From Ascidia mentula (lineage: Eukaryota > Chordata > Ascidiacea > Phlebobranchia > Ascidiidae), in the NCBI GenBank assembly GCA_947561715.1, contig OX387201.1:19978001-20042000 (forward strand): a stretch of DNA of 64,000 nt, in the 5' to 3' direction. Below the pieces are notes generated by a model. That model had not been told where the DNA came from, ran no database searches, and saw only the letters and a list, made by a program, of their open reading frames with translations. The position numbers were made by a program, and so were the translations under genes. Below are positions 2,385-54,436 of the stretch, piece after piece. Each line of letters opens with the position of its first letter. The first letter of the stretch is position 1.

Positions 2385-2841
2385 CTGTTTCAACAACATT
2401 GGTGAAGGCGCTCGACGTTATATTAAGCACAAAAAGCCTGATCGGAATTCATGGCAAGGAGAGTCAGGGTTCGAACCCCGGTGTGGTAAAAGATCAGCAG
2501 CTGTTTTTCATTAAATCCCCATTTTCGTGACGTATTTGTTTCATTGATGACGAAATTAGCAGTGGTTGGATACCGGGTTAGTTTAAATAAGTGCATATAC
2601 ACAGGGATGAGTCAGACCTAACCCGAATATCGTACGTGGAATGCGCTCCACTCAGATTGTAACAACATCGCTAGGAATCACACACCTGTTTATATAATAA
2701 TGTCGCTGTTTCTTTTGAGACCAATTAGATTTGATGACGCAACTCTAGCAATATATGATAAATGTGCGGCAAGTTGAAAGTAAAAATAAACTAGGTTGAT
2801 ATATACTGGTTAGTGCAGTAATTATGGATGTGTGTTAGATC

Positions 2842-3070
2842 TGCGGATACATGCACGCACTGTTTCAATCTATAAAGGTCTCATCAGTGCAGCTGGTGAC
2901 TGTGACACTGGCTGGGACAACTTGGATACTGACAGGGACACAGATTTTAATTTCAAGGTGTCTGTGGTGTAAGTGTGCATGGTAGTCTACAAGCTAGCCC
3001 AGTGCCACAGTCACACCAAACTGCACTAATGAGACCTTATAGGATGAAATATTGTGTGCACGTGTCCGCA
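2842..3070. repeat. Small inverted-repeat element with hammerhead-like arms (copy A)
   Basis: Two arms of about 80 bp in opposite orientation are joined through a short centre. The left arm on the - strand reads CTGATGA, then GACC, then GAAAC; the right arm on the + strand reads CTAATGA, then GACC, then GAAAT. Both are followed by a TC cleavage-type triplet and GCA(G). The flanks of each core (CTGC before, GCAG or GCA after) can pair as helix I. The right arm has lost G5 of the core and the left arm has a weak helix II, so neither is likely to be active. The copy B counterpart is at 50,409-50,632. Confidence 0.6.
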
Positions 3071-3243
3071 TTTCTCATGGATTCTTATGGCTCTTTACTG
3101 CTTGTAAGGAAGAAACACATTTAGTGCTTGTTTTGTAGTTTGACTGATTCTGTTTAAAGTCAGAATACTGCACTTCATTATAGATATTTTGATAACCCAA
3201 CCCCCGTTTTGCCATTGTGAATTATTAAACATATATATAATGT

Positions 3244-3890
3244 TTTTGTTGCTGCCAGGCATATTGTAACTTAATAATCTGTTCTTCTGGCAAAGATAAA
3301 ACGTAACTTTATTCACCGACGTTTCGCCTGTTATTCAACAAGGCTTCCTCAAGGTAATGGTACAGTGCAGCACACAACTAACGCCAAAAAACGTGCCAAC
3401 ACGAAAAAGGGGATAACGCTAACACCGCTTGTAAAATCATGTGATGTATAAAAAATGGGCGGGAAAACTACAGTTACAGTAAGTTGTTATAGAGCACCGG
3501 GAAGTAAACGCACTGTTCCCTATCATTAACACAGCGATTGTTCTTGTGGATGTGGAGCGCTTCTAGGAAGAGGCGCTTTGTATGGTCCACCTCCTTTTCC
3601 AAAACCTTAGCCTTGTCAAAGGCGATCTGATGACCTTTTAAGGCAGCATGCTTGGCTAACGCTGTTTTATTTGCGTCTTTCGACGCAACGTCGCGGCGGT
3701 GCTCCTTAATTCTGGTTTTCAAGGCTCTTCCGGTTTCCCCGATGTAGACACCCTCGCACTCTCCACATGGAATTGAATAAACTACTCCTTTTGGTTCCGC
3801 TACCTCCATGACAATGGAGGTAGCGGAACCGCTGCGAAAAATAGTTTTGACCCCAAACTTATTGTACCTCACTTTTGCCTTCATTTTAAC
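3244..3890 (-). mobile_element. 5'-truncated Penelope-like element (GIY-YIG end only)
   Basis: On the - strand an open frame of about 130 codons (3,474 to roughly 3,870) ends a PLE protein. It contains the GIY-YIG core GVVYSIPCGECEGVYIGETGR followed by LKTRIKEHRRDV, the endonuclease domain that nicks target DNA in this family. No reverse-transcriptase motifs remain. Downstream, a hammerhead-like motif (3,307-3,360) and the terminal CCAGAAGA...CCTGG hairpin mark the 3' end near 3,244. The upstream part of the same open frame is not PLE: it runs into an aldehyde-oxidase exon. Copy B lacks the element, so it arrived after the duplication or was lost there. The 5' boundary is approximate. Confidence 0.75.
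3307..3360 (-). ncRNA. Degenerate hammerhead ribozyme motif of the truncated PLE
   Basis: The - strand shows helix I (ACC with GGT), helix II (GCCTTG...AACAGGC) and GAAACGTC, as in the other PLE motifs here. The first core block is TTGAGGA rather than CTGANGA, so the invariant C3 is replaced. The motif is probably inactive. Confidence 0.6.
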
Positions 3891-3973
3891 ACATACCGCA
3901 GGTTCAAGTATTTTCCCATGGATCATCATGAGATCACAAACAAAATAACATAAATTTGTCTTATCAGACTTAC

Positions 3974-5247
3974 CAGAAGCAGTGTTTCCACAAACTATTT
4001 GAGCAGTCGGTTGGGATTTGAGAACTGCAAATAAATCATTAAACGAAGTTGGTCGGATCCATGAAGTTCCACCATTAAATAATTTAAGCCTGGTTGCTTT
4101 TAGTTGCACTAACCTGACCTTTTTAAGGTCCTAAGAAACAAAAACTGTTGAACATTTCTTGAGATACAATGTTGTTTAATTCAAGTATTTGTTGGTAACA
4201 GAAAAGGAATCAGGAAGTTTGTACATTTTATTGCATGTTGTACCTCAATGTCTGAACATTTTTCCAGCAGTTTTGGGTCAGCATCTGTTGCAGAAGATTT
4301 CATTGCATCAAGTATGGGACGATATCCTGTACAACGACAAATGTCTCCATCAAAACTATCTTTGCTCGGTTGGAGTTGGATCTTCTGATAAAAGGCTAAA
4401 AAGACGAGAGGGTTACTTTATGGTTTTATTGGCAACTACATATAACCAAGCATATACTGCAATGATTTAATATAATAAGCACAGTTGTGTTTGAAAGGCC
4501 AGAAAAACATACTCTGAATAACCCACCACAAATTTTCTGTGTATTCTAATTTATAAGCGAACCTGTACATATTCATGACGAAGCCAGGAGTGCAATAACC
4601 ACACTGTGAACCATCAAACTCAGCTACACGAGTTTGTATTGCATTGTAGCCATCTCTTCGTGACCCAAGTCCTTCCACAGTTGTTACTCTGCACCCGTCC
4701 ACTGAAGCAAGCAGGCTGAGGCACTAAATACATTTGTCAATACATAAATTTTTTTTAATGTGCATTTTTATGTCAAACACAGTAAAATTAGTTAATGAAT
4801 AGAAAGCATCTGCATATCAGTTATGATTAAACAACAAACCAGAACATAGAGTTTAACTTTTAACATTCACCGAGTTTACAGCTTCTATCTTTCCAGGAGT
4901 TTTCTCCATGGCAACCACGCAACATCCACATCCACTCCCTCATAACACATCACTTTTGTTCCAGTGAGTCCTGGTTGTGATCGGAGCCATGAGTTCAGGC
5001 TCATCATGGGATCCACATCATCAACTGAACAAAGCAAACAGGTTTACAACAACTAATAATTTCTACTTCTATCTTTAACAAACATGTCCACATTTTTTGT
5101 GTTATCTGTTGCCAACAACTAAAATTAACTAAATAAAAATGCATTAAAAAGCTAAAAAAAGAAATGCAGAAGATTTTTGCATATAAGCTTCAACAAACCT
5201 GTATACAGTTGTCCATTTACATGGAATGATATTGAGGTACTTGTCAT
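3974..5247 (-). pseudogene. Aldehyde oxidase / xanthine dehydrogenase-like gene, 5' part, copy A, frameshifted
   Basis: Five - strand exons match the N-terminal part of molybdo-flavoenzymes. Exon 1 (5,199-5,247) starts MTSTSISFHVNGQLYT. Exon 2 (about 4,871-5,026) should carry the plant-type 2Fe-2S loop but has two extra bases near 4,931-4,934, so CYEGGCGCC of copy B is lost. Exon 3 (4,563-4,723) encodes GSQCGYCTPGFVMNMY. Exon 4 (4,244-4,395) encodes LLSEDPTPTEQ, then after a frame slip near 4,358-4,364, DICRCTGYRPILDAM, the second 2Fe-2S cluster. Exon 5 (3,974-4,113) reads WIRPTSFNDLFAVLKSQ and VCGNTASG, the start of the FAD domain. Nothing of the molybdenum domain follows; a PLE lies next. 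This is a truncated, non-functional copy. Oxidase versus dehydrogenase cannot be settled from these exons. Confidence 0.8.
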
Positions 5248-6459
5248 TGTACCAAGTATAACCACCTAAAGTGGATGAATAGAAAGTTTTGTCCCACGTA
5301 TTTAAGAAATTCCTACAAAATCTTGTTGACAAAAAATGCACCATCAGTTTTGTATTAAAATTTATAACCTTTTACAATGGGGTTGAGAGATAAAATATAA
5401 AAAAGACAAACCACAGCAATTAATTCATGGATGGATCCCGGATTGGAAAGTTTGTTTTTTTGCGCGGATTTTGTTTTTGGCGATCGTTAATTGTGCAGAC
5501 GATCGCAACGTTTTTTTCGTATGTTAGTGCATTACAGACAACTATGGAAAACAAGTAGAAGTTACAGAGTTGATCGTAATAATTACAGTGTCAAATAAAA
5601 ATATAAGTAAAGTGATCGAGAAAGTGGTCAAATATGAAATACTGCCAAATGCAAAAACTGTCTGCAAGAATTTGTCAGAAACAACCAATCTGGGGGCTTA
5701 CCTATCTAACAACTAATTCTAAAACTGACTACACAAAAACATGATGATAAATCTTGATAATATAAATTTAAATTAACGTGAAAACAAACTTTCGCACGTC
5801 AGGTAATACACAAAAGCTTTCACAGCATTGTAATTAAACTCCGCTGGTGAACTCTCTGTGACGCTTAGCTGAAAAGTCATCATTCATTTGTTTTTCTGAG
5901 TTTCCATTTTTTCCTAAAAACGTGACTTGGCACTGGACAGATAGGGGATTTCCCAGTTTGTTAAAATAATGACGTCAGTGTTTTTTTGATGATCAGAAAA
6001 GGTTGTGCTTCAGGGGCCGTTTTCTGACGCCATAAAAATTTAGGGATTTTTGGAAGACCATAATTTCATCTGTTTTTTTTTTTTCAATTACAATACATTT
6101 TCCAAACAGAAATAAAAAAGAATTTTGTGTCCTAAGATTGCGGAACCTTCCCTTAACGCGAAACATAGACTGTACGTTTCAAGTTACGCCTCAACTACTA
6201 TGCAAAATGTAACGGTTACGACCCACTGAAACTAAACACGCCCAGTCTCCTCGCAACCAGCATTCAGTTGTTAAGTGTGTAGTAGTTTGCTGATTCACTG
6301 AAGATTTGTAAGGGTTAGTATTTGTTACTAAGATTGTTTTTTTACTGACTTCGCGAGCAATCGGTAAAGAAAACCTGAAACTCTGGCTTATTGTGAGTTG
6401 GGCAGGGGTCTACTTTCATATTGAACTGAGAAAACGTTATGCGGAAACGTTTTGTAGAA
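5248..6459. other. Intergenic, no gene recognised
   Basis: This AT-rich noncoding sequence matches copy B near 52,400-53,420 with scattered small indels. I see no conserved reading frame and no RNA gene. It separates the oxidase 5' end from the following + strand protease region. Confidence 0.5.
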
Positions 6460-7088
6460 AATGTTGATTTTTCGTATTTGTGTTACGCTTCTTAAACCAA
6501 ACGCTTTCCAAGGTCCTCAGGACGCTGTATTACCGGCTCACCACAAGCCTGTTCCAGCACAATGGTTTTCCAATCAGATTAAATCTTGTTCATAAAACTT
6601 TAAAATACAAGCAGGCGAATAACGATCTACAAAGCAGCCTGGCAGTCCTCTTTCAGAGTCTCGCGTTAGTCCCGTTTCTATCTTTTATATCACTCGTGAT
6701 TGGCCCAATCGTGTCACGTGAGAGAGAGGGAGTTAGCGCTGCTATGTAAAATCAACGTGCGGTGACTGGTGCGTTCGAGACAATTACGTGAATTAAAATA
6801 TAAATTAACATAAAAACATTTAATTAAGTAGGCGGAAGGTTTAAGAATAAGAGGTGAAAAAACGTGGCGATGAATACGTGAATACGTGATATAATAAAGC
6901 GTGAAAACTTGGAAAGAAAACGTCAAACGAGTGATCGCAGGTTCTTTTGCGCTACATTTGTGGAGTTAACTTTTAAGATAACCAGTTATCTGCAGACAGT
7001 TGTGCACACGGTTTCGACCTATTGGGTCTCATCAGTGTATTTGATGACTGACGACGGTCTGGTCGACTAACAAGCCACACAGACACTA
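6460..7088. mobile_element. Unclassified ~630-bp insertion in copy A
   Basis: Copy B reads straight through this site: CGGAAACGGTTTGAGTT near 53,415 corresponds to sequence on both sides of the segment in copy A. The inserted DNA has no protein resembling a transposase or reverse transcriptase. Its right part contains a good hammerhead-like motif (6,989-7,040). No clear long target duplication is visible; only a few bases (TTTG) are shared at the junctions. It may be a non-autonomous retroelement. Confidence 0.55.
6989..7040 (-). ncRNA. Hammerhead ribozyme-like motif
   Basis: The - strand reads CTGATGA, helix II GACC-CAATA-GGTC, then GAAAC, a possible helix III built on GTGTGCAC, and a GTC triplet followed by TGCAG. 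All invariant core bases are present. It is homologous to one arm of the inverted-repeat element at 2,842-3,070 but better preserved. Helix I is weak, so activity is uncertain. Confidence 0.6.
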
Positions 7089-7793
7089 TTTGAGTTGTAT
7101 GTGGAGGTTAAATATAAACATCACATTTTATGATTATATTTGCGATCAATCAACTTACCAACGTTGGAATTCAAGGATGTAATTCAATGGTTCTCAAACT
7201 GTTCGTCGGGACGCCCTGGTGCATTCATTTCAATTTCCAAAAGCGTCGGGTAACTTGAAACCCAGCCTTTCACGATAATCAGTGCGTCACAAGTACTGTG
7301 AATATCTCCAAATGCGTCGCACTGCAATATGTTCATTTACTTATTTGTTTCAACACCGAGATTCGAACCCACGACATCCTGGGGACGAATCCCGATCGCT
7401 TTTTTTGTTTGTATGACTCGGGTGATTTAACCGAAGTTTTCATTCGATGTGCTCTCCAGCGACACCTATCTAATCAGCCACAGTCATTTCTCATGACGTA
7501 ACAGCGGTCGGTTTCGCTTTGCAATCAATCGTTTTGATCGCGCAGCGTTAAAATGAGTTGAAAGCGAGAAGTTGGTAAATCATGTGTGACGTCAAGCAAG
7601 TAGCCATGGTGGAGACTCATAGTTTTATGTACGGTTGTGTATGCGTACAAATCTGTTGTATTCGAACAAGAATTTGTATGTTAAATCTTATATGTTGCTC
7701 ACAGCAGTAGTTGATTAAATTATTCCAGCAAGTTTGTTGCTAACGCTGCCAGGCATACTATTTGTAATTAAAAGCTCTTCTGGCAAAAGAAAA

Positions 7794-7850
7794 CTTGTTA
7801 GATCGACGTTTCGGTTGTCATACAACAACCTTCATCAGGATAATGAAGTA
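7794..7850 (-). ncRNA. Hammerhead ribozyme motif, left PLE arm
   Basis: The - strand carries helix I (ATC with GAT, plus an outer ACTT/AAGT), core CTGATGA, helix II (GGTTGT...ACAACC), GAAA, a two-base-pair helix III (AC with GU) and the cleavage triplet GTC. This is the minimal type I hammerhead known from Penelope-like elements. All core residues are intact. Confidence 0.85.
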
Positions 7851-8047
7851 AAAAAACGCCCACACGGTGATAAATATTCACGCGCGCATAAAGCACAAAA
7901 AAGGCAAAAAAGGGCAAAAAAGGCGAAGGAAACAACACAAGCTAGGAAGCGGGGATGGGGGGAAACACCAATAATAGAAAACGCGCGTCAACAGGACGAA
8001 ACCGAGGTCTAAAGCATAGCGCCTCGAGGTGCGCAAGACCATAACGT

Positions 8048-10309
8048 TCAACCAGGGGGCATGTCGTGCAGACCGTTTATCAAATTGCGATAAACGGGTG
8101 GAAAGAAGGTTTCCCTCTTATCATTAAGTGCGCACCCATGTGCGTTTATATGAACAGACTCGATGAACATCCTCTTGTATCTGTCCTTTTCCCGGTCCAG
8201 AATTATTGTGTTCTCAAAATTAACCGTGTGTCCTGTTGCTGCAACATGTTGCGACAATGCCGTCCCTGCCACCTTATTGGGCTTGCCAACATCCCGTTGA
8301 TGTTCCTTTAGACGTGTTCTTAGGGCGCGACCCGTCTCACCAATGTACACCTTCTCACACCCTCCACATGGAATGCGGTATACTACCCCTCTAGCATCTA
8401 GCGTACCACCAGCGCGATCTTTAGGATGCGATACCAAGGAGCGTAGTGTAACCGCAGGACGCTCGTACACCAGGATGGAAAAGTCCTCCAGCAGTCTCTT
8501 TAAGGTCTCTGAAAGTCCTGGAAAATATGGGAGAACAACCACACCAGCGGTGGGACTTTTGTTGCACTTAGGCAGGGATGCAGGATTTTGTCGCAGAAAG
8601 GAGATTGGGTAACCATTTCTTAAAAGAGCATCCCGCACACTACCCACCTCTTGTTCTCGGGCCTTTTCCTCTGTAACAAGATTGTCCGCTCTGGTGTATA
8701 GTGCACGCACTACAGCCCGCTTGTGGGATATAGGGTGCGCTGACCGGAAAGATAGATACCTGTCAGAATGTGTCGGTTTTCGGTAAACACTCGTGCGTAG
8801 GGACCCACGGTTTTCCCTTTGAACAGCAACATCTAAAAACGATAAAATCCCACCATGCTCAACCTCCATGGTGAACTTAATGCTCGCTTCGATCGAGTTG
8901 AGGTGCTCAAGCAGCGATTCCACGTAGTCGCGATGCACAACCACAAACGTATCGTCCACGTAACGTCGCCACAAGCGTGGGGGACTCAAAAACGTTGACA
9001 ACGCTCTTTGCTCCACGGACTCCATGACTATGTTGGCGACCACCACTGAAAGCGGAGACCCCATGGCTGTACCAAATATTTGCTTGTAAAATTCACCTTT
9101 GAACGACAAATAGGTGGCGTCCAGACAAAGTTGAATGCACTCCACGATCTCCGGTAGTGGCCACGAACAACGTGCCTCCAATGTTTCATCTCTCTGCAGT
9201 CTTTCTGCCGCCACTTCCACCGCCAACTTCACCGGTACGTTTGTGAAGAGAGAGACGACATCAAATGATACCATTACCTCTTCGTGGTCCACGCGCAATT
9301 CTTTCACCTGTGCCGCAAAATCAATAGAATTCCGGACGGTCTCATCCGTTGCACCCACAAGGGGGGCCAAAATACGGGCCACATGTTTAGCAAGATTATA
9401 CGTTGGAGATCCTACGAACGACACAATAGGCCTAAGTGGAACCCCAGGTTTATGAATCTTTGGAAGACCATAAAGACACGGCGTCCGCCCATCCGTGCTA
9501 TGCAACTCGAAAAACTCCCTTATTGATAACACTTGCTTATCCCTGTGTAAGCGTCCAACCATTGCATTAACCTTTCGTTCGACAACGTGACAGGGATCCC
9601 TCTTCACTTTGCGGTAGGTCTTTTCGTCAGCCAACATTAACTTAAGCTTGTTCTCGTAATCCGATCTATTCATAACCACCGTCACATTTCCTTTGTCCGC
9701 AGGGAGTATTACAATGTCATTATTATGGCGTAACTGCTTGATAGCTGCGAACTCTTCCCTTGACAAATTAGGCTGCGCCCGTTGATGGCTCTTGATGCAG
9801 TTAACCACTTTGCTCTGCAACATAGATTTTATGTGGGCCGGCTGGTGCGCAATTCCTTTCTCTACAGACGCTACGATTTGCCTCCAGGGTACACTTGACT
9901 GCGCGACGGCGAAGTTCAACCCCAAGGAAAGGACTTCCGATTGTTGGGGCGAAAGCGGGCTACTGGAAAGATTCATTACCCACTTTTTGCTAATGGTTGT
10001 GACACCCTGTCGATTCGATCCGTTGTTACACAACTTCAAGCAAGAGGGTGCGCTACGCTTGTCGAAGTTGTGTAACAACGGATCGAATCGACAGGGTGTC
10101 ACAACCATTAGCAAAAAGTGGGTAATGAATCTTTCCAGTAGCCCGCTTTCGCCCCAACAATCGGAAGTCCTTTCCTTGGGGTTGAACTTCGCCGTCGCGC
10201 AGTCAAGTGTACCCTGGAGGCAAATCGTAGCGTCTGTAGAGAAAGGAATTGCGCACCAGCCGGCCCACATAAAATCTATGTTGCAGAGCAAAGTGGTTAA
10301 CTGCATCAA
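8048..10309 (-). CDS. Penelope-like reverse transcriptase with GIY-YIG endonuclease (left arm)
   Basis: The open frame is 753 codons and its product would copy element RNA at a nicked target. Visible in order are an N-terminal PLE block ILPADKGNVTVVMNR (about residue 200), YGLPKIHKPGVPLRPIVS (about 280), GTAMGSPLSVVVANIVME, the catalytic YVDDTF (about 450), SFLDV, and a C-terminal GIY-YIG domain with VYIGETGR (from about 640). The first ~85-90 residues are antisense read-through into the opposite arm and across the spacer, so the true N-terminus has been lost at the junction. No frameshift or stop interrupts the domains, which points to recent insertion. Confidence 0.9.
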   Translation of the reverse strand: MMQLTTLLCNIDFMWAGWCAIPFSTDATICLQGTLDCATAKFNPKERTSDCWGESGLLERFITHFLLMVVTPCRFDPLLHNFDKRSAPSCLKLCNNGSNRQGVTTISKKWVMNLSSSPLSPQQSEVLSLGLNFAVAQSSVPWRQIVASVEKGIAHQPAHIKSMLQSKVVNCIKSHQRAQPNLSREEFAAIKQLRHNNDIVILPADKGNVTVVMNRSDYENKLKLMLADEKTYRKVKRDPCHVVERKVNAMVGRLHRDKQVLSIREFFELHSTDGRTPCLYGLPKIHKPGVPLRPIVSFVGSPTYNLAKHVARILAPLVGATDETVRNSIDFAAQVKELRVDHEEVMVSFDVVSLFTNVPVKLAVEVAAERLQRDETLEARCSWPLPEIVECIQLCLDATYLSFKGEFYKQIFGTAMGSPLSVVVANIVMESVEQRALSTFLSPPRLWRRYVDDTFVVVHRDYVESLLEHLNSIEASIKFTMEVEHGGILSFLDVAVQRENRGSLRTSVYRKPTHSDRYLSFRSAHPISHKRAVVRALYTRADNLVTEEKAREQEVGSVRDALLRNGYPISFLRQNPASLPKCNKSPTAGVVVLPYFPGLSETLKRLLEDFSILVYERPAVTLRSLVSHPKDRAGGTLDARGVVYRIPCGGCEKVYIGETGRALRTRLKEHQRDVGKPNKVAGTALSQHVAATGHTVNFENTIILDREKDRYKRMFIESVHINAHGCALNDKRETFFPPVYRNLINGLHDMPPG

Positions 10310-12053
10310 GAGCCATCAACGGGCGCAGCCTAATTTGTCAAGGGAAGAGTTCGCAGCTATCAAGCAGTTACGCCATAATAATGACATTGTAATACTCCCT
10401 GCGGACAAAGGAAATGTGACGGTGGTTATGAATAGATCGGATTACGAGAACAAGCTTAAGTTAATGTTGGCTGACGAAAAGACCTACCGCAAAGTGAAGA
10501 GGGATCCCTGTCACGTTGTCGAACGAAAGGTTAATGCAATGGTTGGACGCTTACACAGGGATAAGCAAGTGTTATCAATAAGGGAGTTTTTCGAGTTGCA
10601 TAGCACGGATGGGCGGACGCCGTGTCTTTATGGTCTTCCAAAGATTCATAAACCTGGGGTTCCACTTAGGCCTATTGTGTCGTTCGTAGGATCTCCAACG
10701 TATAATCTTGCTAAACATGTGGCCCGTATTTTGGCCCCCCTTGTGGGTGCAACGGATGAGACCGTCCGGAATTCTATTGATTTTGCGGCACAGGTGAAAG
10801 AATTGCGCGTGGACCACGAAGAGGTAATGGTATCATTTGATGTCGTCTCTCTCTTCACAAACGTACCGGTGAAGTTGGCGGTGGAAGTGGCGGCAGAAAG
10901 ACTGCAGAGAGATGAAACATTGGAGGCACGTTGTTCGTGGCCACTACCGGAGATCGTGGAGTGCATTCAACTTTGTCTGGACGCCACCTATTTGTCGTTC
11001 AAAGGTGAATTTTACAAGCAAATATTTGGTACAGCCATGGGGTCTCCGCTTTCAGTGGTGGTCGCCAACATAGTCATGGAGTCCGTGGAGCAAAGAGCGT
11101 TGTCAACGTTTTTGAGTCCCCCACGCTTGTGGCGACGTTACGTGGACGATACGTTTGTGGTTGTGCATCGCGACTACGTGAAATCGCTGCTTGAGCACCT
11201 CAACTCGATCGAAGCGAGCATTAAGTTCACCATGGAGGTTGAGCATGGTGGGATTTTATCGTTTTTAGATGTTGCTGTTCAAAGGGAAAACCGTGGGTCC
11301 CTACGCACGAGTGTTTACCGAAAACCGACACATTCTGACAGGTATCTATCTTTCCGGTCAGCGCACCCTATATCCCACAAGCGGGCTGTAGTGCGTGCAC
11401 TATACACCAGAGCGGACAATCTTGTTACAGAGGAAAAGGCCCGAGAACAAGAGGTGGGTAGTGTGCGGGATGCTCTTTTAAGAAATGGTTACCCAATCTC
11501 CTTTCTGCGACAAAATCCTGCATCCCTGCCTAAGTGCAACAAAAGTCCCACCGCTGGTGTGGTTGTTCTCCCATATTTTCCAGGACTTTCAGAGACCTTA
11601 AAGAGACTGCTGGAGGACTTTTCCATCCTGGTGTACGAGCGTCCTGCGGTTACACTACGCTCCTTGGTATCGCATCCTAAAGATCGCGCTGGTGGTACGC
11701 TAGATGCTAGAGGGGTAGTATACCGCATTCCATGTGGAGGGTGTGAGAAGGTGTACATTGGTGAGACGGGTCGCGCCCTAAGAACACGTCTAAAGGAACA
11801 TCAACGGGATGTTGGCAAGCCCAATAAGGTGGCAGGGACGGCATTGTCGCAACATGTTGCAGCAACAGGACACACGGTTAATTTTGAGAACACAATAATT
11901 CTGGACCGGGAAAAGGACAGATACAAGAGGATGTTCATCGAGTCTGTTCATATAAACGCACATGGGTGCGCACTTAATGATAAGAGGGAAACCTTCTTTC
12001 CACCCGTTTATCGCAATTTGATAAACGGTCTGCACGACATGCCCCCTGGTTGA
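9792..12053 (+). CDS. Penelope-like reverse transcriptase with GIY-YIG endonuclease (right arm)
   Basis: This is the mirror image of the left-arm frame, also 753 codons. The two proteins are the same except at the central spacer and at one site (Lys here, Glu in the left arm, in the sequence DYV-K-SLLEH). Reverse-transcriptase motifs and the GIY-YIG domain are intact. As in the left arm, the first ~85-90 residues come from the antisense of the other copy. A full PLE protein of this type would be expected to have its own N-terminal extension, so this copy is 5'-truncated although catalytically complete. Confidence 0.9.
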   Translation: MMQLTTLLCNIDFMWAGWCAIPFSTDATICLQGTLDCATAKFNPKERTSDCWGESGLLERFITHFLLMVVTPCRFDPLLHNFKQEGALRLSKLCNNGSNRQGVTTISKKWVMNLSSSPLSPQQSEVLSLGLNFAVAQSSVPWRQIVASVEKGIAHQPAHIKSMLQSKVVNCIKSHQRAQPNLSREEFAAIKQLRHNNDIVILPADKGNVTVVMNRSDYENKLKLMLADEKTYRKVKRDPCHVVERKVNAMVGRLHRDKQVLSIREFFELHSTDGRTPCLYGLPKIHKPGVPLRPIVSFVGSPTYNLAKHVARILAPLVGATDETVRNSIDFAAQVKELRVDHEEVMVSFDVVSLFTNVPVKLAVEVAAERLQRDETLEARCSWPLPEIVECIQLCLDATYLSFKGEFYKQIFGTAMGSPLSVVVANIVMESVEQRALSTFLSPPRLWRRYVDDTFVVVHRDYVKSLLEHLNSIEASIKFTMEVEHGGILSFLDVAVQRENRGSLRTSVYRKPTHSDRYLSFRSAHPISHKRAVVRALYTRADNLVTEEKAREQEVGSVRDALLRNGYPISFLRQNPASLPKCNKSPTAGVVVLPYFPGLSETLKRLLEDFSILVYERPAVTLRSLVSHPKDRAGGTLDARGVVYRIPCGGCEKVYIGETGRALRTRLKEHQRDVGKPNKVAGTALSQHVAATGHTVNFENTIILDREKDRYKRMFIESVHINAHGCALNDKRETFFPPVYRNLINGLHDMPPG

Positions 12054-12250
12054 ACGTTATGGTCTTGCGCACCTCGAGGCGCTATGCTTTAGACCTCGGT
12101 TTCGTCCTGTTGACGCGCGTTTTCTATTATTGGTGTTTCCCCCCATCCCCGCTTCCTAGCTTGTGTTGTTTCCTTCGCCTTTTTTGCCCTTTTTTGCCTT
12201 TTTTGTGCTTTATGCGCGCGTGAATATTTATCACCGTGTGGGCGTTTTTT

Positions 12251-12307
12251 TACTTCATTATCCTGATGAAGGTTGTTGTATGACAACCGAAACGTCGATC
12301 TAACAAG
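12251..12307 (+). ncRNA. Hammerhead ribozyme motif, right PLE arm
   Basis: This is the exact mirror of the left-arm motif: CTGATGA at 12,263-12,269, helix II to 12,288, GAAAC, GTC ending at 12,296, where cleavage would fall. Helix I can form between the sequence just before CTGATGA and that just after GTC. Confidence 0.85.
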
Positions 12308-12619
12308 TTTTCTTTTGCCAGAAGAGCTTTTAATTACAAATATTCCAGCAAGTACTTAGTTATTTATAACAACAATTAAAGTTAATTAGCTAATCAAAAA
12401 CATTGATTTGTTTATCAAGTGTAGTCACCACGTATTGTATACTATTGGAATGTGACTGCAGCGTATATACAGAAACTTATACGCAGCAAAATGATGTAAC
12501 CCATAGTATATCCTGGCGTTGAAATGGTGATAACTTATCATATACCGTTATCATGTTAATACATACTGGCATTTTTATGTAGGCATAACTTTTTTATTTC
12601 AACGTGCTGAGCCTGAACA

Positions 12620-15600
12620 ATGTTTGGCGATCTTGATGATGACGTAGATCAAGTATGGAATGAGTGGATCGCAAAATACAGTAAGTTTATTCCTGGTTTC
12701 CACCAAATTGCTTTAATAAGTTTCATTCTTAATTTACATCGATTTAACATTTAGAGTTATATGTTGCAGTTATTTCGATGGTTTGCAGATAAACAATATT
12801 TAAACGAGGACGAACTTCGTGAAAGAAAAATTATTTGGGAAAGAAGTTTAGCTGAAGTGAAAGAACACAATGAAGATTTCAAGACTGGAAAGTTCACGTA
12901 CAGGATTTCACTAACACAGTTCAGCGATCGGGTAAAAAAACAACACATGTCCAACTCAACTCAGTAATGTTTCATACAATGGTGGCTGATCCACCTACAC
13001 TGCGATACCTGGGCTGCGAAGCCTGATAACCTAATGACTTCCTACTAAGTTTGAGTGAACGTTTGTTTAAATACATTTCAACACAGAAAAACGATGAACT
13101 CCCATGGATGGACGATCGGAATGTGGCAGAATGTTACAGACCGCCCTTGTTATTCGGAGCATCGAAACTGTGCGAAGAACCTCAAGAAACTGACCCAAAT
13201 GTTGGCATTGAGGGACCCAACCCTGAAAGTTTTGACTGGAGGGACAAGGGTTGTGTAACACCGGTGCAAGACCAAGGAACAGAGTTACCCGCTTGCTGGA
13301 TATTCAGTGCAGTAAGCGTTCGTAACAAATGCCTAACTGGTATAACTACTGTGATTTAAATATGCAGGTTGGAGCCGTTGAATCTCATCACAAGATAAAC
13401 AACGGAGAATTGGTCAAACTTTCTGAACAACAATTAGTTGATTGTGACAAAAAGGGTGGAGGTACAGGAGATCTGGAATGGGCTTTTGATTACATTCGAA
13501 GGAATGGACTCGTTTTTGAACATGAATATCCGTTCATTGGAAAGGTTTATTTAAAGAAAATCTATTTTTAATATTAAGCAACAATTGGATCTTCAGTCTG
13601 CTTTTATCTCATAACATACTTCCCATAGACGTCCATTACTAAAGTACCTTGTAGATTGCCGGAGTTATAACGTAACCACCATTGAAGTACTGGTTTCTGT
13701 AATTGAGAGTCTTGAAAATAGATACGTTTGATTGTATCTTCCAGAACTGGTTTGGTTTGAGAAACCAAACATCAAAATCAGCAAAACTTATTAGGTTGAA
13801 CCATTGTAATCGAAATTTACGAAAAGATCTTCGTAAACAAAAAGTTACATAACATACATCATGATTTGGCGAAAATATGTGTACGACAATTAGTGCTGTT
13901 ACATTGGACAGAGAACACGATGCAGAGATGGACCTTGCAGACGCATCGAAATCAAAGGATTCAGGAAAATAAATGGATGTGAAAAAGAACTTGAAAATGT
14001 GGTGGCGAAAGTTGGGCCGGTTGCTGTCAGTTTGGTTGTTTCAAATAAATCCAAATTCCACGCTCACACAAACTATGAAGGTAACTTATTGAAAACAACC
14101 TCTTATAATTTAACTGTAAATAAATTTGCCTCTTTGCAAGCAAATATTAAATATCATAGCAGTGTAATGAACTTTCAGATATATTTTATGATCCTGATTG
14201 GGAAAAAGGTTTAAATCCAACGAACGAAAACGCGTTACGTCACACAGTGTTGGTCGTTGGTTATGGAAAAGATCAGAGCAAACCACGTGGCGAAGACAAT
14301 AAGTACTGGATTATCAAGAACAGGTATACGATCATGTTTTGTGTAAACGCCATAAGACAACATGTTATAAAACATTAGTTACCAATGTGGAACAAAACCA
14401 AACTACAACAAATCAGTCAAGTGTTTATCGTTTTTATCGTGCACAATTATACCTTAAATAAGATATATCCTTGTTGGTAAAGTCTTTAAAACTTCTTAAA
14501 AATACTTTAAAATTTCTCAAATTGACAATATTTGCTCATTGTAACGTAATTTTCATGAATTATGAATCTGACGCTCTTCTGGTGGAGAACAACAAATATA
14601 CACCTTTTGTTTAAAAAAAGATTGTATTTTCTGACGTTTCGCCTGTACGTACGACTAGGCTTCTTCAGAGAATAAAACAAACACAGTAGCGAAGCGAACC
14701 CACAGGGCAAAGAAATTGAGCGACGAAAAACAAAAGGGCGTAACAGCTAAAACACAGCGGGACATAATTCAATGGACAACATCGATCATGGGTCAAACGG
14801 CCAAACATGGGAAACAAAAGTCACGAATTGTTACGGGCGAAATTGCGGAACACGGGCGAAAGTACTTTTCCATCGTTCCGATTTAAAACATTCGGTAGCC
14901 AATTAATATAATAATTTTCCACAACCAACCGTTTTGCCAAAATTGTTTCTTGTTTTAATACTTTTGCTTCCTTCCAATTGATACGGTGGTCGGTGTCAAG
15001 CATGTGGGCACATAGGGCAGATTTATTGGGTTCCATATTGCGTATGGCTGCCTTGTGTTCTTTAATACGGGACGTTAAATTGCGCTTAGTCTGGCCAATA
15101 TACACAGTGTTACAATCAAGACAAGGGATTAAGTAAACTACACCGGTCATTTGAAGCATGGGAATACGGTCTTTAGGTTTGGGAAACATGTTTTCTAAAG
15201 TGCATACCGGTTTCATGGCAACTTTTACGCCAGTGGCATTGAGTATTCTTGATATCCGCTCAGAAACTCCCTGTACATATGGTATGGAAGTGAATGCTGT
15301 GTATGTTTGTGTGGGTTTGTTGTGTGTGTGGGTGTGAGATTTAGGTTAGTGGGAAATTTGTTTAGTTTTAGAACGTTCCGAATGTGTTTGCGTTCAACTC
15401 TCCGAGTGTGTGGATCGGCAATATGTGTAATCGTTCTGTTATATAAGGTTCTGGCCACAGTGAGTTTTTGATGTTTCGGATGGTGTGAGGTGTATTGTAA
15501 GTAGCGGTTAGTGTGTGTAGGCTTGTAAAAATGGAGGTGGTAAGTTTCCCGTCCGGGTTTGCAGTGACGTTTACGTCCAAAAATGACAGACTATGGTCAT

Positions 15601-16355
15601 GTTGTGTTTCCCGGGTAAACTTAATAGAAGGTTCGATGCTGTTTATGTGGTTATGAAACCCTGCGACCTCGTCTTTTGCTATGATGACGTACGTGTCATC
15701 GACATAGCGGAGCCAAAGTCGCGGGGGTGTTTTGAAGGAAGCAAGAGCGGTTTGCTCAAGTTGTTCCATTATAATGTTGGCCAGAACCGGTGAAATGGGA
15801 GAGCCCATGGGGGTGCCAAAAATTTGTTGGAAAATGTCGTGTTTATATGTGAAAACAGTCGAGTCTAAGCACAACTGTAATGCCTCTTGGATGTGTGTTA
15901 ACTTAAGATTGGTACGTTCATGTAGTGTTGTGTCTTGTTGTAGTTGGTCCGATGTTGTCCATTGAATTATGTCCCGCTGTGTTTTAGCTGTTACGCCCTT
16001 TTGTTTTTCGTCGCTCAATTTCTTTGCCCTGTGGGTTCGCTTCGCTACTGTGTTTGTTTTATTCTCTGAAGAAGCCTAGTCGTACGTACAGGCGAAACGT
16101 CAGAAAATACAATCTTTTTTAAACAAAAGGTGTATATTTGTTGTTCTCCACCAGAAGAGCGTCAGATTCATAATTCATTATGATACCTGGTGGTCAAAGC
16201 CTATTTTCAGTTTTCAATATTTGCTCAGTTGGGGAGTTGGTGACGATGATTCGGGTTTCAAGAAAATTGCCAAAGATCGAGACAACAATTGTTTTGTTTC
16301 CGGACAAGCAATTTATCCTGTTGGCGTGGGTTGCTACTCACCAGAGGAAAGCTAG
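12620..16355 (+). CDS. Cathepsin-like C1A cysteine protease, copy A (seven exons)
   Basis: Exons are 12,620-12,680, 12,789-12,931, 13,087-13,311, 13,368-13,544, 13,912-14,080, 14,179-14,323 and 16,229-16,355. All junctions are GT-AG, phases agree, and the product is 348 residues. Residues 1-48 form an ERFNIN-type I29 propeptide (IAKYNKQY, WERSLAEVKEHN). The catalytic Cys is at about 118 (PVQDQGTELPACWIFSA), His at about 260 (LRHTVLVVGYG) and Asn at about 286 (KNSWG). The usual GSCGSCW is replaced: the cysteine before the nucleophile is missing and one residue is added. No signal peptide is visible; an in-frame TGA lies two codons before the ATG. A PLE occupies most of the last intron. A 5' exon with a signal peptide cannot be excluded. 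Confidence 0.88.
12968..13035 (+). repeat. SINE tail fragment in cathepsin intron 2
   Basis: GTGGCTGATCCA followed by a CCTGGGCTGCGAAGCCTGA block matches the tail of the SINE at 33,170-33,220. Copy B carries the same fragment near 54,795-54,842, so it predates the duplication. Confidence 0.6.
14620..14680 (-). ncRNA. Hammerhead ribozyme motif, left end of second PLE
   Basis: The - strand reads TTCT, CTGAAGA (position 7 of the core is variable), helix II GCCT...AGGC, GAAAC, GTC, AGAA. Helix I TTCT/AGAA and helix II differ in sequence from the first PLE but keep pairing, which supports the fold. Confidence 0.8.
14821..15216 (-). CDS. PLE GIY-YIG endonuclease domain fragment
   Basis: The 131-codon open frame contains GVVYLIPCLDCNTVYIGQTK, SRIKEHKAAIRNM and a C-terminal VLSPVFRNFARNN. 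It is the C-terminal endonuclease domain of the second PLE. It is no longer in frame with the reverse-transcriptase piece upstream (15,368-15,949). Confidence 0.8.
   Translation of the reverse strand: MKPVCTLENMFPKPKDRIPMLQMTGVVYLIPCLDCNTVYIGQTKRNLTSRIKEHKAAIRNMEPNKSALCAHMLDTDHRINWKEAKVLKQETILAKRLVVENYYINWLPNVLNRNDGKVLSPVFRNFARNNS
15225..15949 (-). pseudogene. PLE reverse-transcriptase fragment, frameshifted
   Basis: The - strand shows IFGTPMGSPISPVLANIIME, LWLRYVDDTYVII and SLSFLDVNV, the palm motifs of a PLE reverse transcriptase. The reading frame slips near 15,520-15,540: the expected continuation resumes in another frame as LYNRTITHIADPHTR. The N-terminal half is missing because the element is fused at 15,950 to an inverted copy of its own 3' end. 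Confidence 0.8.
16055..16114 (+). ncRNA. Hammerhead ribozyme motif, right end of second PLE
   Basis: This mirrors the motif at 14,620-14,680: CTGAAGA, GCCT...AGGC, GAAAC, GTC ending at 16,101. Confidence 0.8.
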
Positions 16356-16388
16356 ACCACAGTTAAAAATTGTCAATGTGCCAAGAAG

Positions 16389-16394
16389 AATAAA
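16389..16394 (+). promoter_or_regulatory. Candidate polyadenylation signal, cathepsin copy A
   Basis: AATAAA lies 34 bases after the cathepsin stop codon, and the copy B gene has the same signal in the same place. Confidence 0.5.
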
Positions 16395-16399
16395 AACGT

Positions 16400-18560
16400 A
16401 ACAAGGACTCGCATATTTTGACTAAAATAGTAAAATAGTTTTCGATCAGTCCGACCACACTTGAAAAGCCCGTGAGGTAACTACGTAGCAACCAGAATAA
16501 CGTTGCCATGTAATTTTCTGGTGATTGTTTGTTGGTCGTCTCCATGGCGCCGGTTTTCCTGTGTAAAGTTTAACCCGGTTTTCCAGTAACTGAATGTCTT
16601 CTGTTAAATGCTTGCTGTGAACAATCTTTTTTCAGAACCTCTAAATCGTCACCCCTCTCACTGGTATATGAAGTGTGCTTTTATATCAGGCGCAGCCTCT
16701 ACTACCTGACATAATACTCTTTGCTTTATGTGTTAACTATGCGTACTTGCATACTGAAAGTGTATTTGTTAATGCGTGTGTCTAAATCTTTGACTAACTT
16801 TTTATCAAAGTAGTTTTAATGAAGTAATAAAGATGTATTTAGTGTAATTCTCTGCATCAGGTTTTCAACCAAAGTCATGCTAGGGAAGAACATAAGAACT
16901 CACGTGCGACTTTATGTCAAATGTGCTGAACAAATAGGATTTCCCAATTAAATTCTACTCAAGTTATATTAGATTTATGTATCGCAAAATTGAAAAACAA
17001 ACTATAAAAAAATGCAGCGATTGAAGAGTGCAATTTATCATAACGCAATTAAAAATTTGGGTAAATTCAATATTATCAAGTGTACAAAAAACTAATATCA
17101 ACAGAACAAAAATCCATGTTTAATATTTACGTTTACATATTTACAACTTATCGGAACCGGGGGCACCCTGGGGTTGTGGATTATTGATTTAAGCGTGTGA
17201 GAAGTCACAAGGTTTGTGTCAAAAAACTTCAAATTTCAACATTCTGCCCAGGCTTTAATGCAGATTCTTAAATGCAGACGTCATTTTGTCTGACTGCGCC
17301 TTGAAATTTCTTTGCTGCATTCGGGCCACTTTGAAACGTAAATTCCAATGCGAAAAACATGTGGCCTTGTAATTATCATGCTTTTTGTCTTTGGTTAAAA
17401 TTAATGCCGGATAATTGTCCATGCTTTAACGGTTTAGTCTTTTCACAATTTCTACGAAGGAATGTGAACCGTGATGTTGTCATAAAATACCTTTGGTTGT
17501 TCAGCCACAATTTACGCTTCCGTCGGAATTTTTATATTATTTGTGGAACAATCTATTCCGGTGGAGTTAACATGGATGTGAGCCACAAGCAAAACGTTGC
17601 GCGTCATCTTCTCCACTGTGGTGAATGCAGATATCATAGAAAATTTAATACATGAGTTACAACTCTGTGATGTTTGAACCCGAAATAAAAGTGAGAACAT
17701 GCATACGATGAACAAACTCTCCTTAGTTTGTGATCAACGTTGTAATTATCTATATATAGCGTCCTGAAACCCGGTAGTAATAAACATTGCTGGGCTTGCA
17801 CGCACTTTCAATCTCTTTACCGTGTTTACTGCAAACTTGTGATTGATTGCAGTATTACTGATGGCATGCAGTACCTGGTACAAGATTAATCTCAGGTTGT
17901 TTGGTGGGAGACGAGATTAGAAGATGAAGCAAGAGCTTGGTGCTGCATGTCGCGTTTGCTAAAAGTAGCGTTTGCGGCAAAAAATTGAAATTGACATTTG
18001 CAAACGCGTCCTTGAAAACACCTATTTATAAAAGTCGGGATGGTTGAACCCAGAATAATAGTTGAATGGGTCGGATATTCTGAATGTAAACGAAGAACAG
18101 GAAACATTGCAAACGAATGTCGTTTTGCGAACACATTTCAACCACATGTCTGTAAAAAATGTGTAACTTTAATAATGACAAATTTATTGCAAAAATAACC
18201 TTGATATAAAGAGTTCTGTTTAATCTTACCCTCCTGGTATTAAATGCTTAACTCAAGGTATTGACCTGAATGTGGAGTTGTTCTGTCATTAAAAATTACT
18301 TGTTTGTGTTACTTTTGTTGGTTGTGCTGCAAGCGACGATTTAGAATAAAATTGGTCTTGCAAGTAAAACGTTTGCGCATCACCTCTGTTGCGATGTCTG
18401 CTCATATCATAGAAAGTGTGAAACATTAAATATTCTGTGCATAGATGCGCGTTGAAATCACCTCATGTTTATTCACATATTCATGAATTCATGCAGCACC
18501 TGGTACAAGATTAGTGCTTGGCGGTGCGTGTCCCGACTGCTGAAAGTAGCAACAACTTCA
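16400..18560. repeat. Noncoding duplicated sequence, homologous to the 3.6-kb tandem units
   Basis: From about 16,850 the sequence matches the beginning of both tandem units at 56,955 and 60,592, with a gap of about 370 bp near 18,250 relative to them. Short open frames (for example 17,359-17,655) are not conserved in length between copies, so I see no gene here. Confidence 0.6.
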
Positions 18561-18563
18561 CCC

Positions 18564-19519
18564 CATCAGTCATTTTGTCGAAGTTGAGTTGTTTTTGTTC
18601 AGAATAAGTTTCTGAGTAAAGGTGAAAATATCAATGAAGCAAACAGCTCAAAGATGTTTAATATCAGACAAATATATTTCGCCTAAAGAGGCATCATCAG
18701 TTTCTGTGACTGCAGAGTGTATAAATCATAAGCAATGTAACCATTTAAATTAACACAAGGTTTATAACTTCTATTACAATAACTTCTATTCTCTTCATTT
18801 GTCGATGTTATGAAAAACATTTGAAATGGAAATTATTTTCCTCTTATGTTTGTATCGGCAAGTTGCAGGTTTTTGGCCATCTGCAGGTATTTATATGAAG
18901 ACATTGTGTTAAAATCGTTATATGTTATTCACGAATATATTACACGTCGTACTTGTGTAGATTTGATGACGTCCAAATGCCGACCATCAGCTTATAGTGG
19001 ACAGAGAACTAGTTTCAACATCTTAATATTTTGTCCAACGTTTGAGAGAGGTTTATCCACTGGAAATGATGAGAGAATTGCTGCAATACATTTGTCCTCC
19101 AGATCACTCGGCAACAAGATTTGTTCGGTGAAAATACTCGCTCTGTTGTTCTACTCAACCAACCTTAACTTTAAGTTGTGGGAGATCTTGTGTTTACGTG
19201 AACCAAACTTATTACAACATGTTTATAAATATTCCTGTTCGCAACTGCAAGATATAAAAATAATTAGCGTGACGATAAATTCTAACGTTATTTTTGCGGA
19301 TCGAATATTCTACTTCAACATTTGTGGCATTTTTTAATTATCTGTATAATTTATTCAGGTGTCAGTGGTTGAATTCTTTTCTGATAATGATAATAAAACA
19401 ACCTGAAAGCGAACCATAGAAATAACTGACTAATGCGTTTAGAGGGCAAATACCGGTATGTGGAACAGGGAAATTCCTATTTTTCATACCAGTTATTTGT
19501 ATGTTTTGTTATATTGTAG
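18564..19519. other. Unassigned region with a 163-codon open frame
   Basis: The region holds a hammerhead-like motif (18,668-18,710) and an open frame at 18,846-19,337 whose translation shows no motif I recognise. It lies just upstream of the CUB-like exons and could contain an earlier exon of that gene, but no splice arrangement can be supported. Confidence 0.3.
18668..18710 (-). ncRNA. Hammerhead-like motif, GAAAT family
   Basis: The - strand reads AAA, CTGATGA, helix II GCCT-CTTT-AGGC, GAAA, then TATA and TTT. Helix I would be AAA/TTT and helix III AT/AT, with cleavage after an A. The same pattern occurs at 22,657, 59,541 and 63,179. Confidence 0.5.
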
Positions 19520-51225: not shown

Positions 51226-51424
51226 AACTTTATGATTTTATTTGGTTGCGACTAGCAACAAGTTACAATATAAACTTAATGTTTGTTCTTTAAACAAGCA
51301 GTTGCCTGAATACTCAACAGCAATAATTTTATATAAATAAGCACAGTTGTGTTTGAAAGGCCAGAAAAACATACTCTGAATAACCCACCACAAATTTTCT
51401 CTGTATTCTAATTTATAAGCGAAC

Positions 51425-52371: not shown

Positions 52372-54436
52372 TGTACCAAGTATAACCACCTAAAGTGGAA
52401 GCATAGATAGTTTCGTCGTATTTAAGAATTAGCTACAAAATTTTGTTGACAAAAAATGCACCATCGGTTTTGTATTAAAATTAATAACCTTTTACAATGG
52501 GGTTGAGAGATAAAATATATAAAAAAAATTCACAAATGGCTGACAAACCACAGCAAATCAATACATGGATCCCAGAGTGGAAAGTTTGTTTTTTGCTCAG
52601 AGGATTTTGTTTTGGCGATCGTTATTTGCGCAGACGTTTTTTTCATATGTTAATGCATTAGTTCATTAATATTTTGCGGATTATCGGTAAATTTTCACAA
52701 AATTATTTGACATTTTTTCCTAAAACATGATAATGATAAATCTTGATAATATAAATTTAAAATTAACGTGAAAACAAAACTTTTGTAAATCAGAAGAAAT
52801 ACACAAGAGCTTTCACAGCATTGGAATTAAATCTCGCTGGTAAACTCCCTGCGACGCATAGCTGAAAAGTCATCATTCATTTGTTTTCTGAGTTTACATT
52901 TTTACCTGAAAACGTGACTTCGCACGGAATGGACAGGGGATTTCCCAATACGTGAAATAATTACGTCAGCTATTTTTAATGATCAGAAATGGTTGGGCTT
53001 CAGGGGCCTTTTAACTGACACTATAAAAAATTAAGGATTTTTGTAAGGCCACAGTTTCATCTGTTTCTTTCCACAGCAATACATTTTCCAAACAGAAATA
53101 GAAACAAAATTTGTGTCCGAAAAGAACCTCCCCTTACGCGAAACCCTGTGTAGGTTTCAAGTTACGCATCAACTTCTTTGTAACGGTTACGACCCACTGA
53201 AACTAAACACACCCTGTCTCCTCGCAACCAGCATTCAGTTGCTAAGTGTGTAGTAGTTTGCTGATTCACTGAAGGTTTGCAAGGGTTAATATTTGTCACT
53301 AAGCTTGTTCTAGCTGACTTTGCGAGCAATCAGTTAAGAAACCGTGAAACTCTGGCTTATTTTGAAGTGGACAGGGGTCTACTTTCACATTGAACTGAGA
53401 AAACGATACGCGGAAACGGTTTGAGTTATAGTAGAAGTTAAAAAGAAACATTGGATTTTATGATTATGATGATACATGCGATCAATCAACTCACCAAAGT
53501 TGGAATTTAAGGATGTAATTTAATGGTTCTCAAACTGGTCGTCGCGTTACCTCGGTGCGTTGTTTCGAATATCCAAGGGCGTCGGGTAACTTAAAACCCG
53601 GCCTTTTACAATAATCAGTGCGTCTCACGTACTGTGCATATCTGCAAATGCGTCGCACTGCAATATGTTCAATTACTTATTTGTTGCCACACCGGGATTC
53701 AAACCCGCGACATCCTGTGGACGAATCCCGATCGCTCTTTTGTTTGTTTGACTCGGGTGCTTTAACCGATGTAGAAGTTTTATGTCATTCGATGTGCTCT
53801 CCAGCGACACTTATCGAATCAGCCACATATATATAAAGTCATTTCCTTCAATGACGTAACAGCGGTCGGTTTCGCTTTGCAATTTATTGATTTGATTGCG
53901 CAGCGTTAAATTGAGTTGAAAGCGAAGTTGGTAAATGATATGTGACGTCAAGTAGCAAATGTTGAGACTCACAGTTTTATGTACGGTTGTGAATGCGTAC
54001 AAAGCTATTGTATTTGAACAAGAATTTGTATGTTAAATTTTATTTGTTACTCACGGAAAAGAAGATAACATTTATGATTTAATCGATAGCAAACAAAACA
54101 AGATCTTGGTTTATTTACTTGCGATAAAAAGCACAGCAGTAGTTTAGCGTTGATTAAATTATTCCGGCAATTACTAAGTTATTTATTCCAACATTTAATT
54201 TAGTTGATTAGCTAATTAAAAAGCACTGATTAGTTTATCAAATGTAGTATCACCCCATATTGTGCATTGTTGGAATGTGGCTGCACCGTATATGCAGAGA
54301 AACTTACACGCAGCAAAATGATGTAATACATAATATGCCATGACGTGGCGTGATAACTTATCATATACCGTTATCATGTTTATACTTACTGGCATTTTTA
54401 TGTAGGCATAACTTTTTTGCTTCAACGTACTGAACA
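52372..54436. other. Intergenic, copy B
   Basis: This corresponds to 5,248-12,619 of copy A without the insertions there, and shows the empty sites for them near 53,415 and 54,163. No gene is recognised. Confidence 0.5.

What the first reader, a model, noticed from the sequence alone, without database searches (positions are those of the whole stretch)
7721..12352. A 4.6-kb near-perfect palindrome of two Penelope-like elements inserted as one unit
The arms are 2,279 bp with zero net indels (mirrored coordinates all sum to 20,101), a 26-bp spacer, and a single amino-acid difference. One 12-bp target duplication (TATTCCAGCAAG) brackets the whole structure and copy B shows the empty site, so both inverted copies entered together. 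The two 3' tails differ by about 26 bp, which argues against simple post-insertion inverted duplication.
Basis: partly seen in the sequence, partly recalled or inferred. Interest (0 to 1): 0.88.

Follow-up and report, generated by a model that had tools for sequence, protein, structure and literature searches.

The report
Jumping gene copied from both ends
A 4.6-kb mirror-image DNA stretch is a recent insertion of a known type of jumping gene (a Penelope-like element), and its relatives in this genome suggest that the gene is usually copied in from both ends of the cut, starting at a different spot on each side.

Summary
The palindrome is real: arms 7759-10037 and 10064-12342 (2,279 bp, one mismatch), TATTCCAGCAAG on both sides, and an empty site in a duplicated copy of the region. 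It is a Penelope-like element (PLE), 5'-truncated in both arms. "One insertion event" is right. "Mobilised as a palindromic unit" is not supported: the central junction occurs once in the genome, and the other copies have their own truncation points. In three PLE families of this genome I classified 66 two-armed head-to-head insertions. Each has the short 3' "tail" on one arm only (65 by script, one by eye; family 3 from pattern positions, not sequence). One further locus, L009, has two tails but copied flank DNA, so it looks like a fold-back product. Inner truncation points are unrelated between arms. Best explanation: two-ended target-primed reverse transcription, each target 3' end starting at a different one of two adjacent RNA sites. 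Two start sites and cleavage and extension of both strands are published in vitro for an anole PLE; a tail on one inverted arm was noted in a rotifer. I did not meet the one-of-each rule in what I read. Known kind of element, useful mechanistic rule.

The parts
7721..7732 (.). left target site duplication TATTCCAGCAAG
   Evidence: empty site in duplicated copy
7733..7758 (-). 3' tail (26 nt) of the left arm (tail+): inferred reverse transcription start site 1
   Evidence: present in the left arm only; present on one arm of each pair counted
7733..10037 (-). left arm, PLE copy, element positions 1-2305 counted from the long 3' end, 5'-truncated
7800..7839 (-). hammerhead-ribozyme-like motif in the left arm (CTGATGA, stem II, GAAACGTC)
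   Evidence: exact pattern match; variants, stem II pairing; no Rfam hit here; identification as hammerhead by eye
8048..10037 (-). left-arm coding region: RT and C-terminal GIY-YIG-like domain, N-terminus missing
10038..10063 (+). spacer = 5' continuation of the right arm
   Evidence: same segment lies 5' of the arm in L009, L013, L014; sequences
10038..12342 (+). right arm, PLE copy, element positions 27-2331, without tail (tail-); last two bases ambiguous with the target duplication
10064..12053 (+). right-arm coding region, N-terminus missing
   Evidence: ORF 9786-12053; sequence
12262..12301 (+). hammerhead-ribozyme-like motif in the right arm
   Evidence: by eye
12341..12352 (.). right target site duplication TATTCCAGCAAG (TA ambiguous with the element end)
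54150..54180 (.). empty target site in the duplicated copy of the region
14539..16215 (.). second, independent head-to-head PLE insertion of another family in the same window (left arm tail- with 16 nt of filler outside it, right arm tail+, TSD AATATTTGCTCA, absent from copy B at about 56327-56338)

Best explanation
A recent, 5'-truncated Penelope-like element inserted by two-ended target-primed reverse transcription. A staggered cut left two 3' ends about 12 nt apart. Each 3' end primed its own cDNA on element RNA, one at start site 1 (giving the arm with the tail) and the other at start site 2, 26 nt further in (giving the arm without it). Both cDNAs ran towards the RNA 5' end, stopped at unrelated points, and were joined head to head by end joining; fill-in of the stagger made the target duplication. 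Shown here: anatomy, target duplication, empty site, one-tail-each rule, unrelated inner ends, junction types. Inferred: staggered cleavage, order of events, end joining, and the identity of the start sites (by analogy with published biochemistry).
For: One-tail-each rule: family 1, 21 of 21 independent two-armed insertions that could be classified; family 2, 16 of 16 (L047 by eye only); family 3, 24 of 24 simple pairs and 5 of 5 complex arrays at their outer ends, from pattern positions. If each arm took either end at random, 66 of 66 would have a probability of 2^-66 (arithmetic). Families 1 and 2 are independent by flank comparison: only loci already merged share flanks. Target repeat of 8 nt or more in 26 of 35 insertions against 4.0% of 1,190 cross-locus controls. 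Inner ends unrelated: Spearman -0.10, n=21, median difference 613 nt. Inner junctions: 8 of 21 overlap by 2 nt or more against 15.8% of random joins; 7 of 21 have filler. No tail-to-tail pair among the 31 multi-arm clusters. Published for an anole PLE: both strands cleaved and extended, and two RT start sites that bound the tail (PMC11167929).
Against: Single-armed insertions with a target repeat exist (L023 twice and L054 with tail; L048 and L066 without, the last two with one mismatch in the repeat), so two-ended priming is not obligatory. 9 of the 35 insertions tested show no target repeat of 8 nt. PMC11167929 saw no start-site difference between top and bottom strands, so the coordination is not reproduced in vitro. 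L009 has two tails. L015 has one arm starting at position 71. In family 3 'tail-' means no tail match within 3 mismatches in a list that showed 100 of 104 places, and 72 clusters were single ends. In this insertion both arms are the same length and the inner ends lie 26 nt apart, which independent truncation does not predict, although random re-pairing gives some pair within 26 nt in 47.6% of trials.
Confidence: 0.8

Rival explanations
1. Self-priming or fold-back: one cDNA snaps back on itself and copies its own strand, giving the inverted second arm (self-priming on an antisense template is the published suggestion for rotifer Penelope).
For: Proposed in PMC3846280 (discussion). L009 looks like a fold-back product: two tails, a 90-bp inverted and a 217-bp direct copy of flank. 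In the window insertion and in L036 the inner ends lie within 26 nt.
Against: Fold-back predicts inner ends at nearly the same element position; 19 of 21 family 1 pairs differ by more than 26 nt, median 613. It does not give one arm a tail that the other lacks unless the copy stops or is re-joined at the second start site each time. Flanks here are not palindromic.
Confidence: 0.08
2. The palindrome is a mobile unit that moves as such.
For: One target duplication brackets both arms; arms are nearly identical.
Against: The 5'-5' junction occurs once in the genome within 3 mismatches. Family 1 copies have their own truncation points. The tailed arm is on the left in 21 of 35 and on the right in 14 of 35, as expected if orientation is arbitrary; this does not by itself count against a unit.
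Confidence: 0.03
3. Assembly artefact from fold-back chimeric reads.
For: Near-perfect palindromes are a known artefact class (recalled); no reads were available to check.
Against: Different tails on the two arms, non-palindromic flanks, both flanks collinear with the empty copy, one fixed mismatch, and many other insertions of like architecture and different length.
Confidence: 0.03
4. Two separate insertions of single elements into the same site in opposite orientation.
For: Each arm looks like a 5'-truncated PLE.
Against: One target duplication for the pair; a second insertion would make its own. The arrangement is head to head with adjoining 5' ends and one tail; chance would give other orientations and nesting (none tail to tail among 31 multi-arm clusters).
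Confidence: 0.02

Closest known systems
Penelope/Poseidon-clade EN+ Penelope-like elements (PAc of Anolis carolinensis, PMC11167929; Pen families of Adineta vaga, PMC3846280; Penelope of Drosophila virilis, recalled)
   Different: Here the tail is on one arm only in all 66 insertions classified in three families, and inner ends are unrelated (family 1); the published explanation of the inverted arm was self-priming. In PMC11167929 a text search found 'inverted' once, for a blocked oligonucleotide end, and 'head-to-head' not at all.
L1 twin priming (recalled; papers seen only as a search listing)
   Same: Two target 3' ends each prime reverse transcription of element RNA; products meet with 5' ends inside, often joined at microhomology.
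   Different: In L1 the second primer lands at a variable internal place and the inverted piece does not repeat the 3' end (recalled). Here both arms carry the same 3' end and the second starts at a nearly fixed site about 26 nt from the first.

Membership tests
Penelope-like element, EN+ (Penelope/Poseidon type) | reverse transcriptase domain | tested here: met
   Pfam RVT_1 E 8.3e-07, 29.4 bits, just under the 29.6 cut-off
Penelope-like element, EN+ (Penelope/Poseidon type) | C-terminal GIY-YIG endonuclease | tested here: inconclusive
   Pfam GIY-YIG E 0.011, 16.4 bits, cut-off 22.6; VYRIPC..C...YIGETGR by eye; the second PLE in the window passes the cut-off (28.6 bits)
Penelope-like element, EN+ (Penelope/Poseidon type) | hammerhead ribozyme motif in the pLTR | tested here: inconclusive
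   No Rfam match in the arms; core pattern at 344 places within 3 mismatches; among 43 distinct listed variants the seven stem II pairs are standard in 22 to 43, the weakest being mostly C/A mismatches
Penelope-like element, EN+ (Penelope/Poseidon type) | inverted and partial-tandem copies with an optional tail | tested here: met
Penelope-like element, EN+ (Penelope/Poseidon type) | target site duplication; AT-rich targets | tested here: met
   repeat of 8 nt or more in 26 of 35 against 4.0% of controls; AT-richness not measured
Penelope-like element, EN+ (Penelope/Poseidon type) | RT groups with PLE/telomerase RTs in a tree | not tested
   no reference PLE proteins on hand; no PDB sequence match up to E 0.1
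L1-type twin priming product | inverted segment is an upstream piece that does not repeat the 3' end (recalled) | tested here: not met
   both arms carry the 3' end
Fold-back (self-primed) cDNA palindrome | inner ends at the same element position, no independent 3' end on the second arm | tested here: not met
   median inner-end difference 613 nt in 21 pairs, though 26 nt in this one; tail on one arm only

The most novel reading that the evidence does not exclude
One RNA molecule is copied twice per insertion: the two target 3' ends are handed to the two adjacent start sites of the same RNA by a dimeric enzyme, so that each site is used exactly once. This would explain the exclusive one-tail-each rule and would fit the shared template variants of the two arms (550 of 585 comparisons agree; 60 of 60 here). 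It would make paired, site-specified double priming the usual integration mode of Penelope elements.
Probability: 0.33. Interest if true: 0.75.

Novelty: new member of a known kind. Interest (0 to 1): 0.55.

Why it matters
How Penelope elements integrate, why their copies are so often inverted, and what the optional tail is, are left open in the two papers I read. A strict genomic rule, one start site per arm, ties the tail and the inverted arm to one event and speaks against the self-priming account. It is countable in any genome with young PLEs and testable with the existing in vitro system.

Tried and rejected
Rfam for a hammerhead in the arms: no match; the weak snoRNA-like hits are below their gathering scores. 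PDB sequence search for the RT: none. Tail+ as the obligatory first start site: single-armed insertions carry either end (3 with tail, 2 without), so not supported. Tail+ or tail- arm systematically longer: tail+ longer in 9 of 21. (family 2 DNA search) scored 40 of 495 candidates and favoured tail+ arms, so it was not used for counting. Same RNA from arm identity: not conclusive. The sibling arm agrees better than any other-locus arm in 9 of 21 loci, ties in 7 and is worse in 5 (L022, L028, L031, L038, L040), and conversion between arms or one active source would look the same. I lowered the one-RNA odds from 0.35 to 0.33 after that recount. Host species: not identified.

Loci left out of the 66. 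Family 1: L009 (two tails, copied flank), L012 (same insertion as L011), L013 (left flank as L021, right end cut), L014 (tandem array), L015 (one arm starts at position 71), L016-L020 (one duplicated locus, single arm found), L023 (two single-armed), L027 (rearranged), and, by my grouping, 4 of 35 clusters not fetched. Family 2: L045, L046, L055 (same insertion as L042), L048, L054, L066 (single-armed), L052, L060, L061, L065 (unresolved). Family 3: 72 single-end and 2 same-strand clusters; the lists showed 100 of 133 body and 100 of 104 tail places. One search also dropped L030 and L033 as too diverged.

Full report
The palindrome exists as described. A repeat search and a base-by-base comparison give arms 7759-10037 and 10064-12342 of 2,279 bp with one mismatch and no indel, and a 26-bp spacer. 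TATTCCAGCAAG brackets the structure at 7721-7732 and 12341-12352. The left arm alone has 26 further bases at its 3' end. The surrounding region is duplicated in the window: 12330-14538 matches 54150-56338 at 92% and 7089-7702 matches 53420-54054 at 84%. The second copy has the undivided site, with some 90 extra bases just left of it. The flanks show no inverted match beyond a 16-mer at 87.5%.

The element is Penelope-like. The ORF matches Pfam RVT_1 (29.4 bits, cut-off 29.6) and weakly GIY-YIG (16.4 bits, cut-off 22.6). The 3' region holds a hammerhead-like core, identified by eye. Rfam does not call it; the core pattern recurs at 344 places, and stem II pairs are standard in 22 to 43 of 43 distinct listed variants. 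L009 carries about 380 bp between the inner ends of its arms that reads as further 5' sequence, so both arms here are 5'-truncated and the 755-aa ORFs through the centre are not native.

A DNA search of the window's own genome (G000, 195.8 Mb) gave 75 matches; 40 of 515 candidates were scored. I fetched 32 loci, 30 and 2, and aligned them to the left arm. Positions are counted from the long 3' end of the left arm. In a pair one arm starts at position 1-3 (tail+) and the other at about 23-39, most often 27-29 (tail-). The spacer of the window is the 5' continuation of its right arm, because the same segment lies 5' of the arm in L009, L013 and L014. The window arms are positions 1-2305 and 27-2331.

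The tail rule was scored against shuffled sequence (for L049 and L064) and the ends were read by eye where printed. Family 1: 21 of 21 classified independent two-armed insertions have one tail+ and one tail- arm. In L037 the aligned left arm begins only at position 253, but the printed flank shows the tail- start followed by a deletion. Family 2 was met through the hammerhead pattern: six loci chosen as visible hammerhead pairs and 20 places taken in list order. 16 of 16 independent two-armed insertions follow the rule, 15 by script; L047 is by eye because its tail has a deletion (score 21, shuffle maximum 23-24). L063 lies beside an older tail-like sequence, but its target repeat shows the left arm to be tail-. 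A flank comparison found shared flanks only among loci already merged. Family 3 is a second insertion in this window (14539-16215) with its own tail sequence. Pattern places for its 3' body and tail were paired by coordinates: 24 of 24 simple head-to-head pairs, and the outer ends of 5 of 5 complex arrays, have exactly one tail; 72 clusters were single ends and 2 same-strand. No multi-arm cluster was tail to tail. Only the window copy of family 3 was checked at sequence level; independence there rests on different spacings. Inner pLTRs in the arrays carry the tail, as expected if they are read-through of tandem templates.

The exception is L009, with tails on both arms. Its right flank begins with a 90-bp inverted copy of the left flank, followed by a 217-bp direct copy, which suggests fold-back synthesis. 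The window insertion has no such flank. L015 is another irregular case: one arm starts at position 71 beside an 8-nt target repeat.

Target repeats: the longest shared word between the two flanks is 8 nt or more in 26 of 35 insertions, median 12, against 4.0% of 1,190 cross-locus controls with a maximum of 11 (L049 and L064 were added later and are not in this test). Inner ends of the two arms are unrelated in 21 family 1 pairs (Spearman -0.10; median difference 613 nt; tail+ arm longer in 9 of 21). Inner junctions overlap by 2 nt or more in 8 of 21 against 15.8% of random joins, by 1 nt in 2, not at all in 4, and have filler in 7 (overlaps taken from BLAST ends, so approximate). The window's own junction occurs once in the genome.

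Template similarity: at 60 sites where at least two bases are each shared by two or more loci, sibling arms agree in 550 of 585 comparisons over 21 loci, while the median arm of another locus agrees in 33-79% (L009, L012 and L015 included, L030 and L033 dropped). In this insertion it is 60 of 60, with L010 close behind at 98%. The sibling is closer than any other-locus arm in 9 of 21 loci, ties in 7 and is worse in 5. This fits a shared source RNA but does not prove one molecule.

Single-armed insertions with a target repeat exist: three with tail (L023 twice, L054) and two without (L048, L066). In the 20 family 2 places taken in order, 13 were two-armed, 3 single-armed and 4 unresolved. Two-ended priming is therefore usual but not obligatory.

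Comparison with the literature. PMC3846280 (passages and discussion section) reports head-to-head inverted pLTRs, target duplications of 8-10 bp, and a 31-bp tail optionally on one of the inverted pLTRs, and favours self-priming on an antisense template. PMC11167929 (parts 1-2 of 4 and passages) shows for purified anole PLE protein that both strands are cleaved and extended and that reverse transcription starts at two adjacent sites that bound the tail, with no apparent difference between strands. Neither, in what I read, links the two start sites to the two arms. Passages of PMC12910113 did not bear on it. In the seven paper searches none of the listed titles or abstract openings states the one-tail-each rule; the other papers were not opened, and older subscription papers are not in that library. 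The rule turns two known facts into one mechanism: two-ended target-primed reverse transcription with one start site per end.

In the window insertion both arms are 2,305 nt (counting the ambiguous TA) and their inner ends lie 26 nt apart, the same as the start-site offset. Two enzymes moving in file on one RNA would give this, but the other pairs do not show it, and random re-pairing gives at least one pair this close in 47.6% of trials, so I leave it as a curiosity.

Noticed in passing
14539-16215: Second, independent head-to-head PLE insertion of another family (RT and GIY-YIG ORFs on the minus strand, 230-bp inverted arm), absent from the duplicated copy at about 56327-56338; 16 nt of filler between target repeat and left arm.
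   Followed up: yes
3241-4130: Probable remnant of a further PLE: similarity to the PLE 3' ends at 3241-3359 and an ORF with a GIY-YIG match just under the Pfam cut-off.
   Followed up: partly
2-18566 and 47605-64000: Large segmental duplication in blocks of 84-95% identity, with a further 3.4-kb tandem copy (56955-60362 and 60593-64000) at 98%.
   Followed up: no
7006-7060: Minus-strand match to Rfam Hammerhead_3, 27.4 bits, E 0.013, below the gathering score of 48.5; outside the PLE.
   Followed up: no
31302-32672: 456-aa ORF with a NACHT domain (E 4.4e-18), NLR-like.
   Followed up: no
21618-22319: 233-aa ORF matching DUF7041 (E 1.5e-20).
   Followed up: no
L009 2369-7854: PLE palindrome with two tails whose right flank holds a 90-bp inverted and a 217-bp direct copy of the left flank: probable fold-back product, a useful contrast case.
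   Followed up: partly
G000:C70:3829794-3833575 (coordinates only): Family 3 array with pLTR copies about 358 bp apart on both arms (5 left, 3 right), tail missing only at the left outer end: both cDNAs may come from the same repetitive or circular RNA.
   Followed up: partly
7733-12342: Both arms of the window palindrome are 2,305 nt (counting an ambiguous TA), with start and end offset by the same 26 nt; unexplained, perhaps chance.
   Followed up: partly
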